From the NCBI GenBank assembly GCA_018268355.1, contig JAFDWR010000004.1, positions 62,404 to 126,403 of the forward strand: DNA of 64,000 bases, read 5' to 3'. Under the pieces are notes generated by a model, which saw only the letters and a program-made list of their open reading frames with translations, had not been told where the DNA came from and did not search any database. The stretch is from Armatimonadota bacterium. GTDB lineage: Bacteria; Armatimonadota; Fimbriimonadia; Fimbriimonadales; Fimbriimonadaceae. Every line of letters starts with the position of its first letter. The stretch's first letter is position 1. Of this stretch, positions 30,745-45,055 are shown piece by piece. Position numbers and translations under genes: made by a program.

Positions 30745-30771
30745 GGGGGTCGAGAATTAGATGCTGACGGT

Positions 30772-30804
30772 GGGCGGAGCCCCGGCCTGCCGGGGCGAGG
30801 GAGA
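30772..30804. repeat. Partial copy of the GCCCCGG-type repeat
   Basis: GGGCGGAGCCCCGGCCTGCC and the following CGGGGCGAGGGA match the inner part of the A-type repeats at 41205 and 44991, without the terminal CCCCTGTCTCTG arms. Confidence 0.6.
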
Positions 30805-30824
30805 GGCCTCAGGCGCCGTCAGCA

Positions 30825-36847: not shown

Positions 36848-37101
36848 CGGGGGTTTTTGCGGGGATGGGAATGGGGCAATTCTGATCCACACTCAATGAG
36901 GAAGAGTGAAATCCGTTCGCTGCGAGGTCCAAATCCAACTGAGGCTGCGAAAGCGAATCCAGCCCTCTTGCTCGAAGACCTGAAGGCTTGAGAAAGAAAG
37001 GCACTTCACGTCAACTGTCGTGACTTTCAGGCGCCTAGCATCCTGTAGCATTGAAGCGAGAGACTCAGACCAAGGAGATTTCTTCCAGGAGTGAAACCAC
37101 G

Positions 37102-38544
37102 ATGAGCATGTTTGATCCGATCCGCGAACTAGCTAAAGCGATCCTGGGAACGAAGAACACGGTCAGGCCCGACTCTCGGAATATCACTGCTCAACTGGGC
37201 CCAACAGGGCAACCCCAACCTGGGCAAAAGAAACAGGCCGAAACAGACATAAGGCCCTTGCCAGAGTATCTCTTTGTTCTCAAAGCCCTCCAAATCAAGT
37301 GCCCAGCAATTTTCGTGACAGGTGGGGCCGGCACCGGAAAGTCAACTTTGATTCGCTACCTCCAGACGAACCTTAAGAACATCGCCGTTGTTGCTCCAAC
37401 TGGCGTAGCAGCCCTTAATGTTGGGGGCGCAACTATTCACTCGTTCTTCGGATTTCCGCCGAAGACCATCAACCCGGACGAAGTCTACAGAATGAAACAA
37501 AGTTCAAGGGATGTGGTCAAGAATCTGGAGGCGTTGATTGTAGATGAGATTTCAATGGTAAATGCGAGCATGATTGATGCCATCAACTTAAGTTTGCAAA
37601 AGGAACGTAACTGCGCATTGCCGTTTGGAGGAGTGCCAGTCGTGTTTGTAGGCGACTTACTGCAGTTACCTCCTGTTGTCGTCGATGCGGAGCAGGCTCG
37701 GTTTTTTACCCACAGGTATGGTGGTCCGCACTTCATTTTCGCAGACATTTTGAAGACGGTACCTCTTGTTACAATCGAGCTCCAACAGGTAATGCGACAA
37801 ACTGATGTAGTCTTCATCAGTCTCTTGAAAAAGTTGCGCATAGGTTTGGAATTGGATGCAGTCATAAATGATCTAAATCAAAATTGCCACCTTGAAGCAA
37901 CGAATCCGAGAATAAATGAGGTTCATCTAGTTCCTACGAAGAGATTGGCAGCGGGCATTAACGCTACGAAATTGAAGGCGTTGGATTCAAAGGAGTGGTC
38001 ATTCAATTCAAGCCATACTGGGCGCTATGATCCAAATCGAGATCCACTGCCAGCTCCCGTTGTTTTGAGCGTAAAAGTTGGATGTCAGGTACTTTTCGTC
38101 AAGAATAATCAACCATGGTGGAGCAATGGAACCGTTGGAGAAGTTACTAGGATTGACGCAGACTGTATCTATGTTAAGATAGCTGATGTAAACAACGAAG
38201 TAAAGGTCGAGCGTGCCATGTGGGAAATGTTTGAATATTACTATAATCGAGAAACGATGAGAATTGAATCAGAGGTCGTTGGTACATTCACGCAATTTCC
38301 ACTCACGTTGGGGTGGGCCCTTACCATACACAAAGCTCAGGGACTAACCCTTGCGTCCGTCAAAGTTGATCTAGGTGAAGGTGCGTTCTGTGAAGGTCAA
38401 ACATATGTTGCTTTATCTCGTTGTCGAACAATCGATGGGGTGCGTCTGGATCGAAAAATTCTCCCTCGTGACATAATCGTTGATGCGCGAATCAAGGCAT
38501 GGTATGAACAGATAAGGCCTTTCGTAAATGAGATTGAAAGTTAG
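37102..38544 (+). CDS. Pif1/RecD-like superfamily 1 DNA helicase
   Basis: From ATG 37102 (AGGAG 10 nt upstream) the product is 480 aa. Walker A GGAGTGKST (74-82), APTGVAALNVGGATIHSFF, the DEISM Walker B (148-152), GDLLQLPPV, a QVMRQTD motif and the C-terminal GWALTIHKAQGLTL and YVALSRCR motifs form a Pif1-type helicase core. Pif1 enzymes unwind DNA 5' to 3', including G-quadruplexes. The gene is visibly more AT-rich and uses A/T-ending codons far more than its neighbours, suggesting horizontal acquisition. The region in front (36848-37101) has no gene I can support. Confidence 0.88.
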   Translation: MSMFDPIRELAKAILGTKNTVRPDSRNITAQLGPTGQPQPGQKKQAETDIRPLPEYLFVLKALQIKCPAIFVTGGAGTGKSTLIRYLQTNLKNIAVVAPTGVAALNVGGATIHSFFGFPPKTINPDEVYRMKQSSRDVVKNLEALIVDEISMVNASMIDAINLSLQKERNCALPFGGVPVVFVGDLLQLPPVVVDAEQARFFTHRYGGPHFIFADILKTVPLVTIELQQVMRQTDVVFISLLKKLRIGLELDAVINDLNQNCHLEATNPRINEVHLVPTKRLAAGINATKLKALDSKEWSFNSSHTGRYDPNRDPLPAPVVLSVKVGCQVLFVKNNQPWWSNGTVGEVTRIDADCIYVKIADVNNEVKVERAMWEMFEYYYNRETMRIESEVVGTFTQFPLTLGWALTIHKAQGLTLASVKVDLGEGAFCEGQTYVALSRCRTIDGVRLDRKILPRDIIVDARIKAWYEQIRPFVNEIES

Positions 38545-38648: not shown

Positions 38649-38706
38649 CCCCCTGTCTCTGGGCGAAGGAGCGAAGCGACGGGGCGAGGACGGGCAGAGA
38701 CAGGGG
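38649..38706. repeat. B-type palindromic repeat
   Basis: The 58-bp element starts CCCCCTGTCTCTG and ends CAGAGACAGGGG, an inverted pair. The inside (GGGCGAAGGAGCGAAGCGAC, then GGGGCGAGGACGGG) is the reverse complement of the B elements at 39774, 41900 and 44508. Confidence 0.85.
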
Positions 38707-38780
38707 TGCTCCGCCACCCGCGAACCAATGCCCAATCAGGATCGTTAAACTTCGAGGAGCAAGCAAAAGCACTCCCAGTC

Positions 38781-39635
38781 ATGAACACGGGCAAGCCGAT
38801 CCCGACGACCTACCGCTTCCAAGTCGACATCAACGCCGACTCGATGCGGGATGTCTTCGCGGCCTTTGGGGACAACTGGTACTGCGACAACGGGGGCGAC
38901 GCCGGCCTCGTCCCCGCCTCCGAGGTGGAGCCGATCATCCAGCGTCAGACCCTGGACAAGGCGACCGGCGAGCTGGTGGACGATCCGGAGTACTACCTGT
39001 TCCGCTTCACGGGCGAGCCCGTTCTCGACGTCCGGCTGATTGACGAGGTGAAGGCTTTTCTCGCCGGAGAGCCTTCGGCAGTGAGCGAGATGGGCGTTTG
39101 GGATTCCGATAGCCTCCGGGCCCATGCCTGTGTGGTCGCGCCGTGGGAGACGCTGCCAAAGGGCGTCCAGCTCCACGACAAGACCTGGCCCCGGAATGCG
39201 GACTGGGTTCGCCACGCGCGCTACATCGTGGGGACGCTCTTCCCGGATGTGGACCTGCCCGAGGATGACATCGCCCCCACCCGGGCGCCGAGGCAATTCA
39301 GCAAAGGGAAGGTCATCTTTGCGGTCGTCGGATTGCTCCTGTTTTGGTACGGGGCGACGATCTTGGCCAAGTCGAGCACCTTGGCCCACGCCCTGGTGGT
39401 GAAGGAAGAGTGCGCCGTGGTTGGAAAGGAGCGTCGGGAGGTGCTCGCGTGCTTCTCGTCGCACGGCATTCGGTGGGACCCCTTTGTGAAACCGCAGGGG
39501 CTAACCGCTCAGCTGCCGATCCACTTCCCGTGGTTCGTGCCCTCGTTTGGCGACAACTACGAGCTTGAGTTTGTCTTTGATGCGTCGGACAAGCTGGTGA
39601 GCTGTCGACTGCGGACGGTGGTCGGAGCGCTGTAG
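38781..39635 (+). CDS. Membrane protein with large cytoplasmic domain, unknown
   Basis: From ATG 38781 the product is 284 aa. The first 170 residues are soluble and Asp/Trp/Pro-rich, with no signal peptide. One hydrophobic helix follows (about 178-196), then an external domain of about 85 aa with two cysteines (VKEECAVVG, EVLACFSS) and YELEFVFDASDKLVSCRL at the end. I recognise no family. The upstream sequence is the B-type repeat, so the promoter is uncertain; GAGGAG lies 22 nt upstream of the ATG, too far for a normal ribosome site. Confidence 0.6.
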   Translation: MNTGKPIPTTYRFQVDINADSMRDVFAAFGDNWYCDNGGDAGLVPASEVEPIIQRQTLDKATGELVDDPEYYLFRFTGEPVLDVRLIDEVKAFLAGEPSAVSEMGVWDSDSLRAHACVVAPWETLPKGVQLHDKTWPRNADWVRHARYIVGTLFPDVDLPEDDIAPTRAPRQFSKGKVIFAVVGLLLFWYGATILAKSSTLAHALVVKEECAVVGKERREVLACFSSHGIRWDPFVKPQGLTAQLPIHFPWFVPSFGDNYELEFVFDASDKLVSCRLRTVVGAL

Positions 39636-39642
39636 GGCGGGT

Positions 39643-39965
39643 GACCCCCGTCTCTGCCCGCTGTCCCCGTGTTTGTCAGTGAACTAAAGGGTTCTATGTG
39701 GCAGGCGACCCCCTGTCTCCGCCCGCTGTCCCCGCGTTTGTCAGAGAACTAAAGCGTGCTATGGGGCAGGCGACCCCCTGTCTCCGCCCGCGCCTCGCCC
39801 TCGTCGCTTCGCTCCTTCGCCCAGAGACAGGGGGTAACGGCGGCTGTCTTCGCGTACGAGCGTTCTCGAATTGGATCTCAGGATCGATCTGACGGCCACC
39901 GACTTTGCCCCGCGACCGGGCGGAGCCCCGGCTTGCCGGGGTGAGGGTGTGGCCGGGCGGGAGCG
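39643..39965. repeat. Composite repeat I: two 64-bp tandem units, B element and A-type remnant
   Basis: This covers most of the gene-free stretch 39636-40097. Two units of about 64 bp (39643-39706 and 39707-39771; CTGTCCCCG...TGTCAG...ACTAAAG...CTATG-GGCAGG) lead into a B element (39774-39834) with CCCCCTGTCTC/GAGACAGGGGG ends. After a 73-bp spacer comes an A-type core (GCGACCGGGCGGAGCCCCGG, from about 39910). The same order is found at 41767-42097. I see no protein-coding frame. Confidence 0.8.
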
Positions 39966-40097
39966 GGCCGCCCGCCGCAAAGCACGGTTTGTGGAGACCG
40001 GTAGCACGGGGACAGCACGTGCCGGGCGGGGTTCACATCCGCCCAAAGCACAGGAAACTCCCACACTCCACCCAAGCTACACTAGACCCACAACCCC

Positions 40098-40595
40098 ATG
40101 GACATCTCCAGCCGCATCGGACGAAACGTTGACGTCGAGCTCACCGAAACCTACCGGGCCCCAGAAGGGACGCTCCTCTTCGCCAACGAGCACCTCCTCG
40201 CCGTCCGGCTGAAGCCGGAGACCCCGCGGGAGGAGAGGGTGAGCCTCATCCCCCTCCACAGGATCAACCAATTGATCTTCAACCCCCGGCCGCCGCTCAA
40301 CCTTGCCGCCAATGCCGACTTTCTCAAGCTGAGCCTTGGACCGGAAACGATCGGAAAGGAGGTCCTCGGCCAGATCCGCGACCATCGCGTGCCGGTCGAG
40401 CTCTTCTTCGAGAGCGAAGAAGTGGAAACCGGATTCATCACCCAGGTTGACGACACCTGGGTCGAAATGCGGAGAGTGGACGACGAAACGTGGGAGGATG
40501 GGGGCGAGTTGGTTGCCCGCCTGAGCACGGTGGTCCTGGCGACCATCGGCCTCGCGACGACCCAGCTGATCACGAACGCGCTCGATCCTAAGTGA
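40098..40595 (+). CDS. Soluble protein, unknown
   Basis: The product is 165 aa without signal peptide or membrane helix except a mildly hydrophobic C-terminus (LSTVVLATIGLATTQLITNAL). The body is beta-rich: VELTETYRAPEGTLLFANEHLLAVRLK, then LKLSLGPETIGKEVLGQI and VELFFESEEVETGFITQVDDTWVEM, which looks like a small barrel. I recognise no family. TACACT lies 14 nt before the ATG (40078-40083). Confidence 0.6.
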   Translation: MDISSRIGRNVDVELTETYRAPEGTLLFANEHLLAVRLKPETPREERVSLIPLHRINQLIFNPRPPLNLAANADFLKLSLGPETIGKEVLGQIRDHRVPVELFFESEEVETGFITQVDDTWVEMRRVDDETWEDGGELVARLSTVVLATIGLATTQLITNALDPK

Positions 40596-40598
40596 GGG

Positions 40599-40802
40599 TC
40601 ACTCGGCCGAGGAACCTTCCTCTTCGTCGATCAAAATCGACCACGGCTTGCTCCACAAACCCGCCACGGCGAGCGGAAAGAAGGCGTCCAGTCCGATGGA
40701 ACGCCACCAGAGCACGGTGCCGACAACGCCAAAGATGAGCAGCCCAACAAGAAGTGACAGAAACCCCCAAACGAGCGCGAGTCGGCCTTTATAGGACTTC
40801 AT
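40599..40802 (-). CDS. Small two-helix membrane protein, unknown
   Basis: The product is 67 aa with two hydrophobic segments (about 9-32 and 38-50) and an acidic tail. It is convergent with the 165-aa gene, with a 3-nt gap. Its reality rests on a membrane-protein composition and tight packing; no family is recognised. Confidence 0.45.
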   Translation of the reverse strand: MKSYKGRLALVWGFLSLLVGLLIFGVVGTVLWWRSIGLDAFFPLAVAGLWSKPWSILIDEEEGSSAE

Positions 40803-40823
40803 TTCATTGCCATCGGTAGGTGG

Positions 40824-41108
40824 TCAAGATATTCCCGCGGTGAAGACGAATGCCAAGATGGCGAGGCTTGCCGTCTTGGGCGCCTGGGGTTTGTCTCGGC
40901 TGATCCAGAGAATGGCGAGCGCGTTGATGACGACCGCCGAGATTCGTAGGGCGAAGACGTTCATGTGGATGCGCTCGCCTGGGTTTTCAAGGAACTTCAG
41001 GATGCTCGCCACGACGACCGCGACCAGGAGCGTCCACGGCGACGAGAAGACCCGTGAAAGGAATCCCATGACCGGTTGGGGGGGCTTTTGATCCGGGATC
41101 ACGTCCAT
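40824..41108 (-). CDS. Small membrane protein, unknown
   Basis: From ATG 41108 the product is 94 aa with three hydrophobic segments (about 20-36, 48-63 and 75-91). TAGAAT lies 10 nt before this ATG; ATG 41120 is in frame but overlaps that box. It may be cotranscribed with the 67-aa gene downstream. No family recognised. Confidence 0.5.
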   Translation of the reverse strand: MDVIPDQKPPQPVMGFLSRVFSSPWTLLVAVVVASILKFLENPGERIHMNVFALRISAVVINALAILWISRDKPQAPKTASLAILAFVFTAGIS

Positions 41109-41204
41109 TGATGAGTCCATTCTATGACAAAAGCAACGCGCAATCGCCACGTCGAAGTTTCATCCGGCTTAGCGAGGAGTTGTGGGGAGGGTGCTCCGCC
41201 CCAT

Positions 41205-41270
41205 CCCCCTGTCTCTGGGCGGAGCCCCGGCTTGCCGGGGCGAGGGTGTGGCGCGGGCAGAGACAGGGGG
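41205..41270. repeat. A-type palindromic repeat, complete
   Basis: A 66-bp element with 13-bp inverted ends CCCCCTGTCTCTG / CAGAGACAGGGGG. Inside are GCCCCGGCTTGCCGGGGC, a 7-bp dyad, and GAGGGTGTGGCGCGGG. It is nearly identical to 44991-45055, 3.8 kb away. It lies in the 41109-41357 gap. Confidence 0.9.
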
Positions 41271-41357
41271 ACACGCTGCCCGCGTCTCCATGCCTCCATT
41301 GCGCGCTCATCCTCCCCTAGTCCAAATCAAACTCGCTACAATGGGACCATAACCCCG

Positions 41358-41768
41358 ATGGAAGACGTGAGCAAGGAAACGAACCCCAATGAGCACAAGG
41401 AACCGTCGCTTCCGTGGCTTGGCTGGTTCAACACTTTGTTAGAGTTCGGCTTGGGTATTGCTCTTTTGTGCCTTATTCCAGAAGTCCTGCGCGAGTCCCC
41501 GGAAAACCAAGTTCTCGGCCTAATCCTGGGCTCCCTTTGTTTGGCCGCGCTCGTTGGGTTCTACTTGTGGGCGAAGAAGTCCCGACCAAAGTTCTTGGGC
41601 TGGATGTTTTTGGGGCTCGTCGTCTTGGTTGGCGTGGCGATTTACGAGACCACTAGGTTTGGGGTTTCCGGTGTTGTCGTGAGCCTGCCCATCGTGCTTC
41701 CCCTCCTCGTGTTTGTCATGGGTAGCCACACCAAGGCGTTGATCGCCCCGTTTCGCCGGGGCAAGTGA
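41358..41768 (+). CDS. Small four-helix membrane protein, unknown
   Basis: From ATG 41358 the product is 136 aa: a polar N-terminus and four hydrophobic segments (about 18-42, 50-68, 76-94 and 99-120). The longer upstream frame is repeat translation. TACAAT is 15 nt upstream (41337-41342). No family recognised. Similar in size to the proteins at 42213, 42642, 43082 and 43446. Confidence 0.6.
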   Translation: MEDVSKETNPNEHKEPSLPWLGWFNTLLEFGLGIALLCLIPEVLRESPENQVLGLILGSLCLAALVGFYLWAKKSRPKFLGWMFLGLVVLVGVAIYETTRFGVSGVVVSLPIVLPLLVFVMGSHTKALIAPFRRGK

Positions 41769-42097
41769 CCCCCTGCCTCTGCCCGCTGTCCCCGAGTTCG
41801 TTCGTGGGCTAAAGCGTGCTATGGGGCAGCATGTCCCCGCGCTCGTAGATGCGCAAAGGCGTGCTATGGGGCAGGCGGCTATTGAGGTTGCAGGCATGTC
41901 CCCCTGCCTCTGCCCGCGCCTCGCCCTCGTCGCTTCGCTCCTTCGCCCAGAGACAGGGGGTGGGACGGCCGCCCTCGCAAGCGAAGGCTTGGACTTCACC
42001 CAATCTGATTGCCACCGACTGTACCCCGCGACCGGGCGGAGCCCCGGCTTGCCGGGGTGAGGGTGCGGCTCGGGCGGGCGCGGGCAGAGACAGGGGG
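41767..42097. repeat. Composite repeat II: tandem units, B element, spacer, A-type element
   Basis: The gene-free stretch 41769-42212 starts with one 64-bp unit (41767-41830), a decayed second unit, a B element (41900-41960), a 62-bp spacer and an A-type element (about 42023-42097) ending CAGAGACAGGGGG. The spacer end GCCACCGACT and CCCCGCGACCGGGCGGAGCC match composite I almost exactly, so the two composites share an ancestor. The rest (42098-42212) holds only the next gene's leader. Confidence 0.82.
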
Positions 42098-42212
42098 ATG
42101 GGAAAACAGCCCACGAAAAGCCCACCGCTAGACGACTCCTTCCCACCTGCCTTACACTAAGGTCATCACCACCGTCCCCACCCCCGATCAACCGGCACCC
42201 AAGCCACCCCAC

Positions 42213-42620
42213 TTGACCCTCCGCGCCGCGGTAGAGGTCGTCGACTTCATCCTTTTCATGGGTGGCGTGTGGGGTCTCCTGGCGGTCAATGATCGAGTCT
42301 CTGCGCCTGGAGAGTTCCGTTTCGGCTCGATGGTCCTCGGATTCTTCGCCGCTGGCCTCCTCATCGGCGCGATCATGGCGCTCAAAGAAGAACAACCCCA
42401 ATCTTGCGTCCTCGCTGTGATAATCGCCCTTCCGATCGGCATTATCGCGGCGGTCGTCGCCCTCGCCCAGTCGGGAGCCGCCTCCTGGCCCCACATCGGA
42501 GTGGGCGTGCTCGCTTTGGTCTTCGTCGCCACCGGAAAGTTCATACGGAGGTGGCTCAACCGGGCCATCGGCATCTCCATGCCCCCAGAGGGACTACCAA
42601 AGTCACCATCCGGTGTATGA
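42213..42620 (+). CDS. Small membrane protein, unknown
   Basis: The product is 135 aa from TTG 42213 with four hydrophobic segments (about 9-25, 38-56, 65-86 and 93-110) and a Pro-rich end. A TACACT box about 50 nt upstream suggests the true start may lie earlier, but no ATG, GTG or TTG is available in that stretch. No family recognised. Confidence 0.5.
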   Translation: MTLRAAVEVVDFILFMGGVWGLLAVNDRVSAPGEFRFGSMVLGFFAAGLLIGAIMALKEEQPQSCVLAVIIALPIGIIAAVVALAQSGAASWPHIGVGVLALVFVATGKFIRRWLNRAIGISMPPEGLPKSPSGV

Positions 42621-42641
42621 TGAAGCGAGAGAGCGTCGTCG

Positions 42642-43085
42642 ATGGAAGCTGTTCGCGAGCCGACCCCCATCCCCTCCAGCCCTTCGTCCCCCGAGCCGAA
42701 GCGGGCGAAGTGGTGGAGGGCTCTCAAGCTGTTTGTTGGGGAGCCCCTCAGGATGGCGTTCATCATCGGCATCCTCTTCCAGGAAAGGGCGCCCACGGAG
42801 GCCTTCTTTCAGAAGTCACAAATCGCCATCATCCTGGGACTTCTTTTCTCGCTTAGCCCGATCATCGGACTCGCCTACCTTAAGAGGAACCCGAAGTCTG
42901 AATCTCGCGGGATGTGGTTGCTCCTCTTTGCCCTACTTTGCCTGGGCGCATTCTTGGCCGAATCGGCCGGACTCTCGGGGGCGCTCTTTGCCATCGTTGC
43001 GGTGCTCGCGTCCCTCATGGTCCTTCAGGTGCTCGAGTACTTCGACTCCCTAGAGAATCCGACCCCGGCCCCGGAGGCCACATGA
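42642..43085 (+). CDS. Small membrane protein, unknown
   Basis: The product is 147 aa. A Pro/Ser/Lys-rich head (1-25) precedes a helix with an RMAFIIGILF segment and three more hydrophobic segments (about 60-80, 92-106 and 110-128). Its TGA overlaps the next ATG (ATGA), so the two genes are cotranslated. No family recognised. Confidence 0.6.
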   Translation: MEAVREPTPIPSSPSSPEPKRAKWWRALKLFVGEPLRMAFIIGILFQERAPTEAFFQKSQIAIILGLLFSLSPIIGLAYLKRNPKSESRGMWLLLFALLCLGAFLAESAGLSGALFAIVAVLASLMVLQVLEYFDSLENPTPAPEAT

Positions 43086-43480
43086 AGGCCATCCGGCGCT
43101 CGTTCGCCTCGAACCTGATCGAGGGCCTGGGCCACATTCTCTTCTGGACCTGGGTTTCTCTCGAGATGGTCCAATGGGCACACCGTGAGGAAGCCTTGCG
43201 CGCAACCTCCTTGCTGGCAGGGCTAGGGGCACTCGTGGTCTATGCCGGACTCACGGCATGGGTTCTCCGAACTCGGCCCAAGCCCTTCGAACTCGCGGCG
43301 GTGATGCTGGTTTTGTTCCTGCTCGCCGGGAACGGGCTCGTTTGGCAGCTGAAGCTGAACTTCGCCTGGTTCAACCTCCCTTGGGTGCTCTGCGCGGCGG
43401 TTCTGTTTGGATCGTTAAACCTCTTCGCGTTGTTGAAGCTGAATCGTGAACGTCGTGAAGCCAAGCTCGATTCTGCCTAA
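43082..43480 (+). CDS. Small membrane protein, unknown
   Basis: The product is 132 aa from ATG 43082 with four hydrophobic segments (about 14-32, 42-62, 72-88 and 96-118) and an Arg/Lys/Glu tail. The start overlaps the upstream stop by 4 nt and its 3' end overlaps the next gene by 35 nt, so three genes form one transcript. No family recognised. Confidence 0.6.
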   Translation: MKAIRRSFASNLIEGLGHILFWTWVSLEMVQWAHREEALRATSLLAGLGALVVYAGLTAWVLRTRPKPFELAAVMLVLFLLAGNGLVWQLKLNFAWFNLPWVLCAAVLFGSLNLFALLKLNRERREAKLDSA

Positions 43481-43859
43481 CCTCGCCTTGCTGGTCGTCG
43501 GGCTTGTCGTTTACACGATCCCGTTCCTCGATGGCCCCACGATGGGTGAAGCGACCGCTGGCTTCAACCTTGGCCATGCTCGGCTGCCGCTGACCGTCCT
43601 CGGTGCGGCGATGTTGGGTTGGTCGGCGAGTGGCCTGGGGCGCTGGCGGTGGTTTGGCCTCCAGTCGGCTCTTGCTGTGTTCCACGTCTTCATCTTTGGC
43701 TGGCAGAAGGATGAGGGATGGCGTCCGCTCGGGTTCCTTTGGGTGGCACTCGACGAGTCGGTCGGGTTCGTTCTGGTCTGGTGGGGCGTTCCCGTTTTGC
43801 TGATGCTGATATCGGCTTGGATTCGTGAAAAACGGCGAAGTTTGGCAATCGAGCGTTGA
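43446..43859 (+). CDS. Small membrane protein, unknown
   Basis: The product is 137 aa from GTG 43446 (35-nt overlap with the upstream gene). Four hydrophobic segments (about 8-27, 48-61, 70-86 and 105-124) and a basic C-terminus. No family recognised; third member of the 42642-43859 group. Confidence 0.55.
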   Translation: MNVVKPSSILPNLALLVVGLVVYTIPFLDGPTMGEATAGFNLGHARLPLTVLGAAMLGWSASGLGRWRWFGLQSALAVFHVFIFGWQKDEGWRPLGFLWVALDESVGFVLVWWGVPVLLMLISAWIREKRRSLAIER

Positions 43860-43884
43860 TCGGTTATCCTAAAGATTGGGAGAA

Positions 43885-44364
43885 ATGGGAAGGACTTTTA
43901 GGAGGTGGGCAGCCCGGAGCAGGCTAAGGCGCATCCGGCGAGCTCAGTGGACTGGGTTTCCCGCGCTCATGCTGTTCATCGGCCGCTTGTTGCTGGACAC
44001 GATAGTCTTTGGCTATGGCTGTCGACTCTTCGCGGAATGGTCGGGGTATGTCTGCGATCCTCCGACGGGAGCGGATTTCAATCGGTTTACGATTCCCGCG
44101 GGGATTTTGCTCGGCATGTTTTGCCTGATGGGCTATCCGAGGGTCCGGCCGATCTACTTCAACACAGTGAACATCACTTCTCCCTTGAGGTTGGCGGTCT
44201 TTGTAGGGATCATTTCCCTGGCCCAGAACCGGGGCGAGAACCTCGTCGCGATCTGCTGTGTGACCTTCTCCACTTGTCTGTGGGTGCTCTCGGTTCGGGA
44301 ACACTTCCACCACTTTGCTCGGGCTCGTCAGCGACGGGTGAAGGGACGCACCGCGACCGCCTAG
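43885..44364 (+). CDS. Membrane protein with Arg-rich N-terminus, unknown
   Basis: From ATG 43885 (GGGAG just upstream) the product is 159 aa; TTG 43876 is a possible longer start. An Arg-rich head (MGRTFRRWAARSRLRRIRR) precedes hydrophobic segments at about 27-47, 72-86, 102-115 and 121-138, and the tail is again basic. No family recognised. Confidence 0.55.
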   Translation: MGRTFRRWAARSRLRRIRRAQWTGFPALMLFIGRLLLDTIVFGYGCRLFAEWSGYVCDPPTGADFNRFTIPAGILLGMFCLMGYPRVRPIYFNTVNITSPLRLAVFVGIISLAQNRGENLVAICCVTFSTCLWVLSVREHFHHFARARQRRVKGRTATA

Positions 44365-44373
44365 GTTGTTCGC

Positions 44374-44640
44374 CACCCTCTGTCTCTGCCCGCTGTCCCC
44401 GAGTTCGTCAGTGGGTCAGACCGTGCTGTGGGGCAGGAGGACCCCCTGTCTCTGCCCGCTGTCCCCGAGTTCGTCCGTGGGCTAAAGCGTGCTATGGGGC
44501 AGCGTGTCCCCCTGTCTCCGCCCGTCCTCGCCCTCGTCGCTTCGCTCCTTCGCCCAGAGACAGGGGGAAAGGGCGGCCTGCCCCAAAGTACGCCTCGACG
44601 GGATGGCCAACATGGGGAGAGCCCGCCCGGTCGCGGGGGA
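44374..44640. repeat. Composite repeat III: two tandem units, B element and inverted A-type remnant
   Basis: Units of about 63-65 bp (44376-44438 and 44439-44503) share CTGTCCCCGAGTTCGTC and GTGCTATGGGGCAG with composites I and II. A B element follows (44508-44567). The end carries GCCCGGTCGCGGGG (44625-44638), the reverse complement of the start of the A-type core in composites I and II, so this part is inverted. Occupies the gap 44365-44649; no gene seen. Confidence 0.78.
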
Positions 44641-44649
44641 GCTAGGTGA

Positions 44650-44841
44650 TCACTGATTATCTTTCGAAGAAAGGATACGAAAGAACACGATCGGGAGGAT
44701 CGCTACAAAGCCTAGTGCCACAGCTATGACAATGTTGGGCTGCTTGTTGGGTCGAAACAAGTAGGCCAGGAAGTTAATCGCTAGAATCAGGGATCCGACG
44801 AAGATTGCCCCCGGCATTTGCTTTTTGTCATTTGGTCTCAT
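44650..44841 (-). CDS. Small two-helix membrane protein, unknown
   Basis: The product is 63 aa: a polar head (MRPNDKKQMPG), two hydrophobic segments (about 12-29 and 36-55) and a charged tail. GGAGC lies 9 nt upstream of the ATG. It is less GC-rich than most neighbours. No family recognised. Confidence 0.5.
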   Translation of the reverse strand: MRPNDKKQMPGAIFVGSLILAINFLAYLFRPNKQPNIVIAVALGFVAILPIVFFRILSSKDNQ

Positions 44842-44990
44842 CGTTTGATTGCTCCAGGCGCACGAGGTTGATCGGCGACTCGGAAAAACGGGCCTGGGTG
44901 AAGGGGATACCCATCTAACCTATCTCGTCTCCCGCCCATAGCATATCGCTACTTGTGTGGCCCGAGCCGAGCTCCGAGGCGAATCTCTCA

Positions 44991-45055
44991 CCCCCTGTCT
45001 CTGGGCGGAGCCCCGGCTTGCCGGGGCGAGGGTGTGGCGCGGGCAGAGACAGGGG
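44991..45055. repeat. A-type palindromic repeat, complete
   Basis: 65 bp with CCCCCTGTCTCTG at the left and CAGAGACAGGGG at the right; identical over its inner part to 41205-41270. It lies in the gap 44842-45251. The rest of that gap holds a TACAAT box (45116-45121) for lpdA and an untranslated leader of about 130 nt. Confidence 0.9.

What the first reader, a model, noticed from the sequence alone, without database searches (positions are those of the whole stretch)
38649..45055. New composite repeat family with 13-bp inverted ends between small membrane-protein genes
Seen: A-type (66 bp, GCCCCGG core) and B-type (58-61 bp, GAAGGAGCGAAGCGAC core) elements share CCCCCTGTCTCTG/CAGAGACAGGGGG ends. 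Three composites of about 0.3 kb (39.64, 41.77 and 44.37 kb) combine 64-bp units, a B element and an A part, one of them inverted. An A remnant also lies at 30772. Inferred: mobilisable or recombination-spread palindromic elements (MITE/REP-like) or structured RNA; no transposase is nearby.
Basis: partly seen in the sequence, partly recalled or inferred. Interest (0 to 1): 0.6.

Follow-up and report, generated by a model that had tools for sequence, protein, structure and literature searches.

The report
Dispersed DNA hairpins with interchangeable stems
This bacterium and some of its relatives carry dozens of scattered DNA hairpins that share the same sequence at the junction between their two stems, while the stems themselves differ almost from copy to copy yet stay self-complementary, which suggests that the shape rather than the stem sequence is what is kept and copied.

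Summary
The repeats are real and not local. The 12-mer CCCCTGTCTCTG occurs 35 times in the genome against 0 for its reversed control. But the 13-bp ends are only one version of a variable outer stem. The real element is a hairpin: a variable 10-16 bp outer stem, a conserved asymmetric junction (GCCCGRnGCCnnnCCCTCG / CTCCGCCC), and a variable apical stem. A and B are two apical types of it. A covariance model finds about 70 copies here and copies in 11 other genomes, five genera in all, of the same family. Stems covary strongly: 91% of cells paired, 310 two-sided against 15 one-sided changes (alignment fitted to the structure; on a free alignment agrees). G-U pairs are nearly absent, which favours DNA over RNA structure. 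Close pairs are nearly always inverted, in one polarity, like REPINs. The RAYT/Y1 transposase is absent from most carriers. No target duplications or Rfam match were found. A 44-bp module, seen only in this genome, sits between direct copies of the local stem arm. Best reading: a new REPIN-like dispersed palindrome family, recognised or copied as a DNA structure; enzyme unknown.

The parts
30760..30824 (-).
   Evidence: R1/R2 hit 30762-30824; arms 11/11 complementary
38649..38706 (-). Hairpin, B-type apical stem, arms of class CCCCCTGTCTCTG
   Evidence: R1 hit 38651-38705; BLAST 95% to B
39642..39773 (+). Two [arm copy + 44-bp U module] repeats; U at 39661-39704 and 39726-39769
39774..39834 (+). 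Hairpin, B type: first member of inverted doublet 1
   Evidence: R1 hit 39776-39832
39904..39971 (-). Hairpin, A type, partly mismatched arms (7/10): second member of doublet 1
   Evidence: R1 hit 39908-39968; arms
39972..40015 (-). Inverted, degenerate 44-bp U module after the A hairpin
   Evidence: C4:102375 minus
41205..41270 (-). Lone hairpin, A type, arms CCCCCTGTCTCTG/CAGAGACAGGGGG; its first 65 nt match the copy at 44991 exactly, flanks unrelated
41767..41899 (+). Arm copy + U module (41786-41829), then U subtype with tail (41831-41893)
41900..41960 (+). Hairpin, B type: first member of doublet 2
   Evidence: R1 hit 41902-41958
42022..42097 (-). Hairpin, A type: second member of doublet 2
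   Evidence: R1 hit 42024-42085
44374..44507 (+). Two [arm copy + U module] repeats; U at 44393-44436 and 44459-44502
44508..44567 (+). Hairpin, B type; its inverted partner survives only as a fragment (about 44622-44640)
   Evidence: R1 hit 44510-44565; fragment read from the sequence
44991..45055 (-). Lone hairpin, A type, the 65-nt twin of 41205-41269

Best explanation
The feature is a family of dispersed, non-coding DNA palindromes of REPIN-like organisation. Each monomer is a two-helix hairpin: outer stem P1 (10-16 bp, sequence free), a conserved asymmetric junction (C-rich strand GCCCGRnGCCnnnCCCTCG on one side, CTCCGCCC on the other), and an apical stem P2 (sequence free). Shown: P1 and P2 are kept paired by two-sided changes, with almost no G-U pairs, in at least three genera; close pairs are almost always inverted with one polarity; whole hairpins, arms included, exist as identical copies in unrelated places of this genome; a 44-bp module lies next to many hairpins between direct copies of the local arm. 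Inferred: the hairpin is recognised as a folded DNA strand, with the junction as the sequence-specific contact, by a DNA-processing enzyme not yet identified; lone hairpins are mostly remnants of inverted doublets; unusual arms arise because palindromic DNA is re-copied onto itself (template switching or conversion at the hairpin), which also multiplies the arm in tandem.
For: Spread: about 70 model hits in this genome; hits in 12 of 113 genomes of the class, all in one family and five genera, none in the other 101, so the model does not ring at random. Stems: of 39 cores found by the junction alone, 36 have arms at least 8/10 complementary, 17% for swapped unlike arms; in the two other element-rich genomes 35/35, with 34 distinct arms among 35. 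Covariation of P1: free alignment 85.7% of cells paired against 62.1% shuffled, 88 two-sided changes against 25; 96 distinct hairpins, 310 two-sided and 15 one-sided changes, 0/500 shuffles reach the score (alignment fitted to the structure). P2: six pairs covary, 41 two-sided and 0 one-sided changes. Wobble pairs are not enriched among mismatches on either strand. Inverted doublets of one polarity: 12 of 13 close pairs here; in relatives six of seven close pairs, counted from the hit list. Clean ends: two hairpins identical over 65 nt with unrelated flanks. Arm copying: the 5' arm repeated 6.2 times in tandem at C1:186 kb, the direct copies and the inverted arms sharing the CCCCATG variant; U modules bracketed by direct copies of the local arm in several loci with unrelated arms. 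Sister species keep the arms of orthologous hairpins and show one two-sided change, T-A to C-G. Almost all clusters are intergenic.
Against: No enzyme was found; the only one tested, Y1/RAYT, is absent from this genome and most carriers. No target duplication and no clean empty site were seen. In G120 against G121 the comparable loci are occupied in both, so there is no sign of recent movement there. In one relative the hairpins favour convergent 3' ends (9 of 20 against 11 of 70 other junctions), which fits a cellular role at transcript ends. The scarcity of G-U pairs would also follow if both RNA strands had to fold. At 41767-41960 the two direct arm copies carry a change that the inverted arm lacks, so copying is not perfect.
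Confidence: 0.5

Rival explanations
1. A structured RNA family (3'-UTR or intergenic RNA element) whose helices drift while a protein- or ligand-binding junction is conserved.
For: A conserved junction with two covarying helices is the usual signature of an RNA motif. In one relative elements lie just after stop codons and 12 nt after a tRNA-Leu. Two of three one-sided changes between sister species make G-U pairs on the G-rich strand (read).
Against: Only 15 one-sided against 310 two-sided changes and almost no G-U pairs on either strand. No preference of gene context in this genome; one copy sits between divergent genes in front of a GTPase gene. No Rfam match. Inverted doublets are not explained.
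Confidence: 0.2
2. Bidirectional transcript-end hairpins (terminators or mRNA stabilisers) that are needed on both strands.
For: Needing both strands would remove G-U pairs. Enrichment between convergent genes in G024; at C4:533148 both convergent stop codons lie at the start of the arms (read).
Against: No T-tracts; separate terminator-like hairpins lie beside some copies. Divergent contexts are as common here as in the background: 16 of 49 against 29 of 93 gaps. Does not explain the conserved junction.
Confidence: 0.12
3. REP/REPIN elements of a RAYT (Y1) transposase.
For: Dispersed extragenic palindromes in inverted doublets of fixed polarity, as in REPINs (PMC3116915). In G120 one hairpin lies 25 nt from the start of a Y1 gene.
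Against: Y1 is absent from this genome and from nine of the eleven other carriers, while present in many relatives without the hairpin. No constant tetranucleotide at the stem foot. The G120 gene has its own palindrome, GACCCCTCCGGGGTC, which also flanks its relative in G033, where the hairpin is missing.
Confidence: 0.08
4. The element is only the junction plus P2, inserted into the loop of pre-existing simple hairpins, so that P1 belongs to the target.
For: Explains locus-specific P1. In G121 the locus of a G120 hairpin is a simple hairpin with the same arms, GCCCGTCCG-GCCTGAAGCCCA-CGGACGGGC.
Against: That loop still holds the junction motif GCCtGAAGCC and the missing part is bounded by GCC repeats, so an internal deletion is simpler. 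P2 varies as well as P1. Simple hairpins of this kind are rare in the fetched sequence.
Confidence: 0.1

Closest known systems
REPINs / REP elements and BIMEs (RAYT-associated)
   Same: Short extragenic palindromes, many copies, inverted doublets with a spacer, mosaics with extra modules (PMC3116915, PMC2817692)
   Different: REPs keep their stem sequence and a GTAG or CGTC tag, often with G-T pairs (PMC3733652). Here stems are free, the junction is fixed, there is no tag at the foot, and most carriers have no RAYT
Pneumococcal BOX elements
   Same: Composite intergenic repeat with a tandem, variable-number middle module (PMC3049150)
   Different: BOX has defined end modules and target duplications; here U lies between copies of the local hairpin arm, and the hairpin occurs without U in other genera
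E. coli BoxC / intrastrand triplex motif
   Same: G/C-rich conserved strand, intergenic, sometimes in inverted pairs, no transposase known, deletions that leave a hairpin (PMC4666352)
   Different: The triplex pattern CCCTCNCCCN3-6GGGNGAGGG is absent from the window; the present element has two variable Watson-Crick stems

Membership tests
REP/REPIN of RAYT | Inverted doublets of extragenic palindromes | tested here: met
   12 of 13 close pairs in +- polarity in own genome; six of seven close pairs in relatives (counted)
REP/REPIN of RAYT | Cognate RAYT (PF01797) in the genome | tested here: not met
   None in own genome, G001, G024 and most other carriers
REP/REPIN of RAYT | Conserved stem sequence with GTAG or CGTC tag at the foot | tested here: not met
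   Arms differ between loci, 34 distinct of 35 in relatives; no constant tetranucleotide at the foot in listed copies
MITE | Fixed terminal inverted repeats matching a transposase | tested here: not met
   Ends vary by locus
MITE | Target-site duplication | tested here: not met
   Longest shared flank 4.1 nt on average against 3.9 in swapped pairs, 56 hairpins of relatives
Intrinsic terminator | Stem followed by a T-tract at gene 3' ends | tested here: not met
   No T-tract as a rule in the listed copies; divergent contexts common
Known RNA family (Rfam 15) | Match to a covariance model | tested here: not met
   No gathering match in the window; no convincing match over the hairpins in 17 loci at a lax threshold
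Pneumococcal BOX | boxA and boxC end modules around tandem boxB | not tested
   No comparison with the BOX sequences was run; only the plan is alike
Integron attC | Integron integrase and GTTRRRY/RYYYAAC core sites | not tested
   Integrase not searched for; the conserved part here is the junction, not the stem foot
E. coli BoxC triplex motif | CCCTCNCCC N3-6 GGGNGAGGG core | tested here: not met
   No match in the window

The most novel reading that the evidence does not exclude
A dispersed DNA element whose identity lies in a fold: an enzyme recognises a junction between two helices and tolerates any stem sequence, and the stems are rewritten at each locus by copying one arm onto the other, so that copies lose stem homology while staying paired.
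Probability: 0.3. Interest if true: 0.8.

Novelty: new variant of a known kind. Interest (0 to 1): 0.6.

Why it matters
Palindromic repeats are usually found by searching for similar sequence. A family whose stems share no sequence is nearly invisible to that, and was seen here only because one arm version had spread in this genome. If the stems are rewritten by copying, these loci offer a natural record of template switching at DNA hairpins. If an enzyme reads the junction, it would be a structure-specific DNA-processing system without the usual RAYT.

Tried and rejected
The 13-bp end as the family marker: rejected, one arm version among several. Terminator targets: native hairpins with T-tracts exist but do not share arms with the elements. 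RAYT: not supported. A general 3'-end preference: not supported in this genome, some support in G024. The U module elsewhere: only chance singletons in other genomes and viral contigs; the collection scans may leave out this genome's own records. U as a folded unit: z-score +0.5 as single-stranded DNA. A third helix CGAGG/CCTCG inside the junction: predicted in some copies but without two-sided changes, so left as sequence conservation. The codon model of this genome did not carry over to relatives and was retrained. Literature searches for variable-stem repeats gave nothing closer than REP, BOX and BoxC.

Full report
Observation. The repeats are present at the stated places. The 12-mer shared by the ends occurs 35 times in the 2.7-Mb genome, 0 times for the reversed control, and 0-1 times in each of 60 relatives. 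BLAST of the B, unit and A sequences against the genome found many copies in which only the core matches and the 13-bp ends do not. This showed that the ends are not the common part.

Anatomy. Printing all copies gives one hairpin family. On the C-rich strand: 5' arm, GCCCGRnGCCnnnCCCTCG, apical palindrome, CTCCGCCC, 3' arm complementary to the 5' arm. A and B differ in the apical palindrome (CCCCGGCAAGCCGGGG against TCGCTTCGCTCC); other apical types exist. The arms in the window, CCCCCTGTCTCTG, are one version; others are GAGCTGAATGG, GATGCTGACGG, CGATCCCGCCC and GTCCTCGCCC. Cores selected by the junction alone, without regard to arms, have arms at least 8/10 complementary in 36 of 39 cases, against 17% for swapped unlike arms; the arms fall into about seven clusters.

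Covariation. On a free alignment of 39 hairpins the outer stem has 85.7% paired cells against 62.1% after shuffling, and 88 two-sided changes against 25. On 96 distinct hairpins aligned to the model the figures are 90.9%, 310 two-sided and 15 one-sided changes; this alignment was fitted to the structure and leans towards it. The apical stem in relatives has 41 two-sided and no one-sided changes. RNA helices usually change through G-U pairs (general knowledge); here G-T and A-C mismatches are no commoner than others. I read this as pairing kept at the DNA level, or on both strands; it does not prove it.

Distribution. A covariance model found 70 hits in this genome, 15 and 22 in two other genera, and three singletons among 61 genomes. 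A second model over 113 genomes of the class found 12 carriers in five genera of one family. In G001 and G024 nearly every arm is unique. Rfam has no such family.

Doublets. In this genome 12 of 13 close pairs are in the same inverted polarity, 106-291 nt apart. Of the close pairs in relatives I count six in that polarity and one in the other (from the list). The first two composites of the window are such doublets (B plus, A minus) with U modules outside; the third has lost most of its partner. The plan resembles REPINs.

The U module. U is 44 nt, CTGTCCCC...GGGGCAG, and was found only in this genome. In many copies it is directly bracketed by copies of about 20 nt of the local hairpin arm: 25 of 59 with at least 15/20 matches, and in several loci with unrelated arms at 18-20/20. 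The cross-locus control reaches 15/20 in 15% of pairs, because many loci share one arm version. This is either a target duplication on insertion or tandem duplication of arm plus U. At C1:186 kb the arm alone is repeated 6.2 times with a 23-nt period, and the same C-to-A variant is present in the direct copies and, complementary, in the inverted arms. The arm itself is therefore prone to copying.

Orthologues. In two sister species with about 88-92% identity, orthologous hairpins keep the same arms, including an A/T-rich one, TTTTTTGTTCG/CGAACAAAAAA. A third pair shows one two-sided change. A fourth has lost the inner part in G121 and kept the arms; the alignment printed for that pair is of the wrong strand, so this reading rests on the printed L215 sequence and its hairpin. 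Clean empty sites were not found.

Enzyme. PF01797 is absent from this genome, from G001 and G024 and from nine of the eleven other carriers, while 41 of 61 relatives have it. In G120 a Y1 gene starts 25 nt from a hairpin, but its own palindrome GACCCCTCCGGGGTC is different and is shared with its relative in G033, whose locus has no hairpin of this family.

Place in the genome. Of 49 clusters with called neighbours, 16 are divergent, 23 between co-oriented genes and 10 convergent; the gaps over 60 nt in the same regions give 29, 51 and 13. The genes were called by a simple codon model, which missed some small genes and the PIF1-like helicase. In G024 nine of 20 hairpins lie between convergent genes against 11 of 70 other junctions.

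Verdict. A real, cross-genus family of dispersed DNA hairpins with free stems and a fixed junction, REPIN-like in plan, without a known enzyme. The mechanism (structure recognition, arm rewriting) is inferred. The statements on strand and DNA level are the least certain. The organism was not identified by name.

Noticed in passing
L052:1778-1847 (G000:C1:945277-945346): One hairpin lies inside a called open reading frame and seems to be read through, like palindromic elements found in protein genes.
   Followed up: no
window 37051-38544: PIF1-like helicase gene that the codon model trained on this genome did not call, so its codon usage may be foreign.
   Followed up: partly
L063 (G000:C4:586500-606000): Hot spot with many hairpins and U modules within about 20 kb; contig C4 holds 31 of 54 hairpins counted.
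   Followed up: no
L196:2553-2963 (G120): Y1/RAYT gene beside a hairpin and beside its own REP-like palindromes TTTGACCCCT...GACCCCTCCGGGGTCAGG.
   Followed up: partly
L161:2959-3122 and L162:3002-3479 (G024): Hairpins next to a tRNA-Leu and just upstream of the tmRNA gene (tag ANNSYAYAA).
   Followed up: no
L184, L208, L213, L111: Several contigs of draft genomes end within or close to a hairpin of this family, as if it stops assembly.
   Followed up: no
window 41358-44364: Run of small predicted membrane proteins without Pfam matches above cut-off.
   Followed up: no
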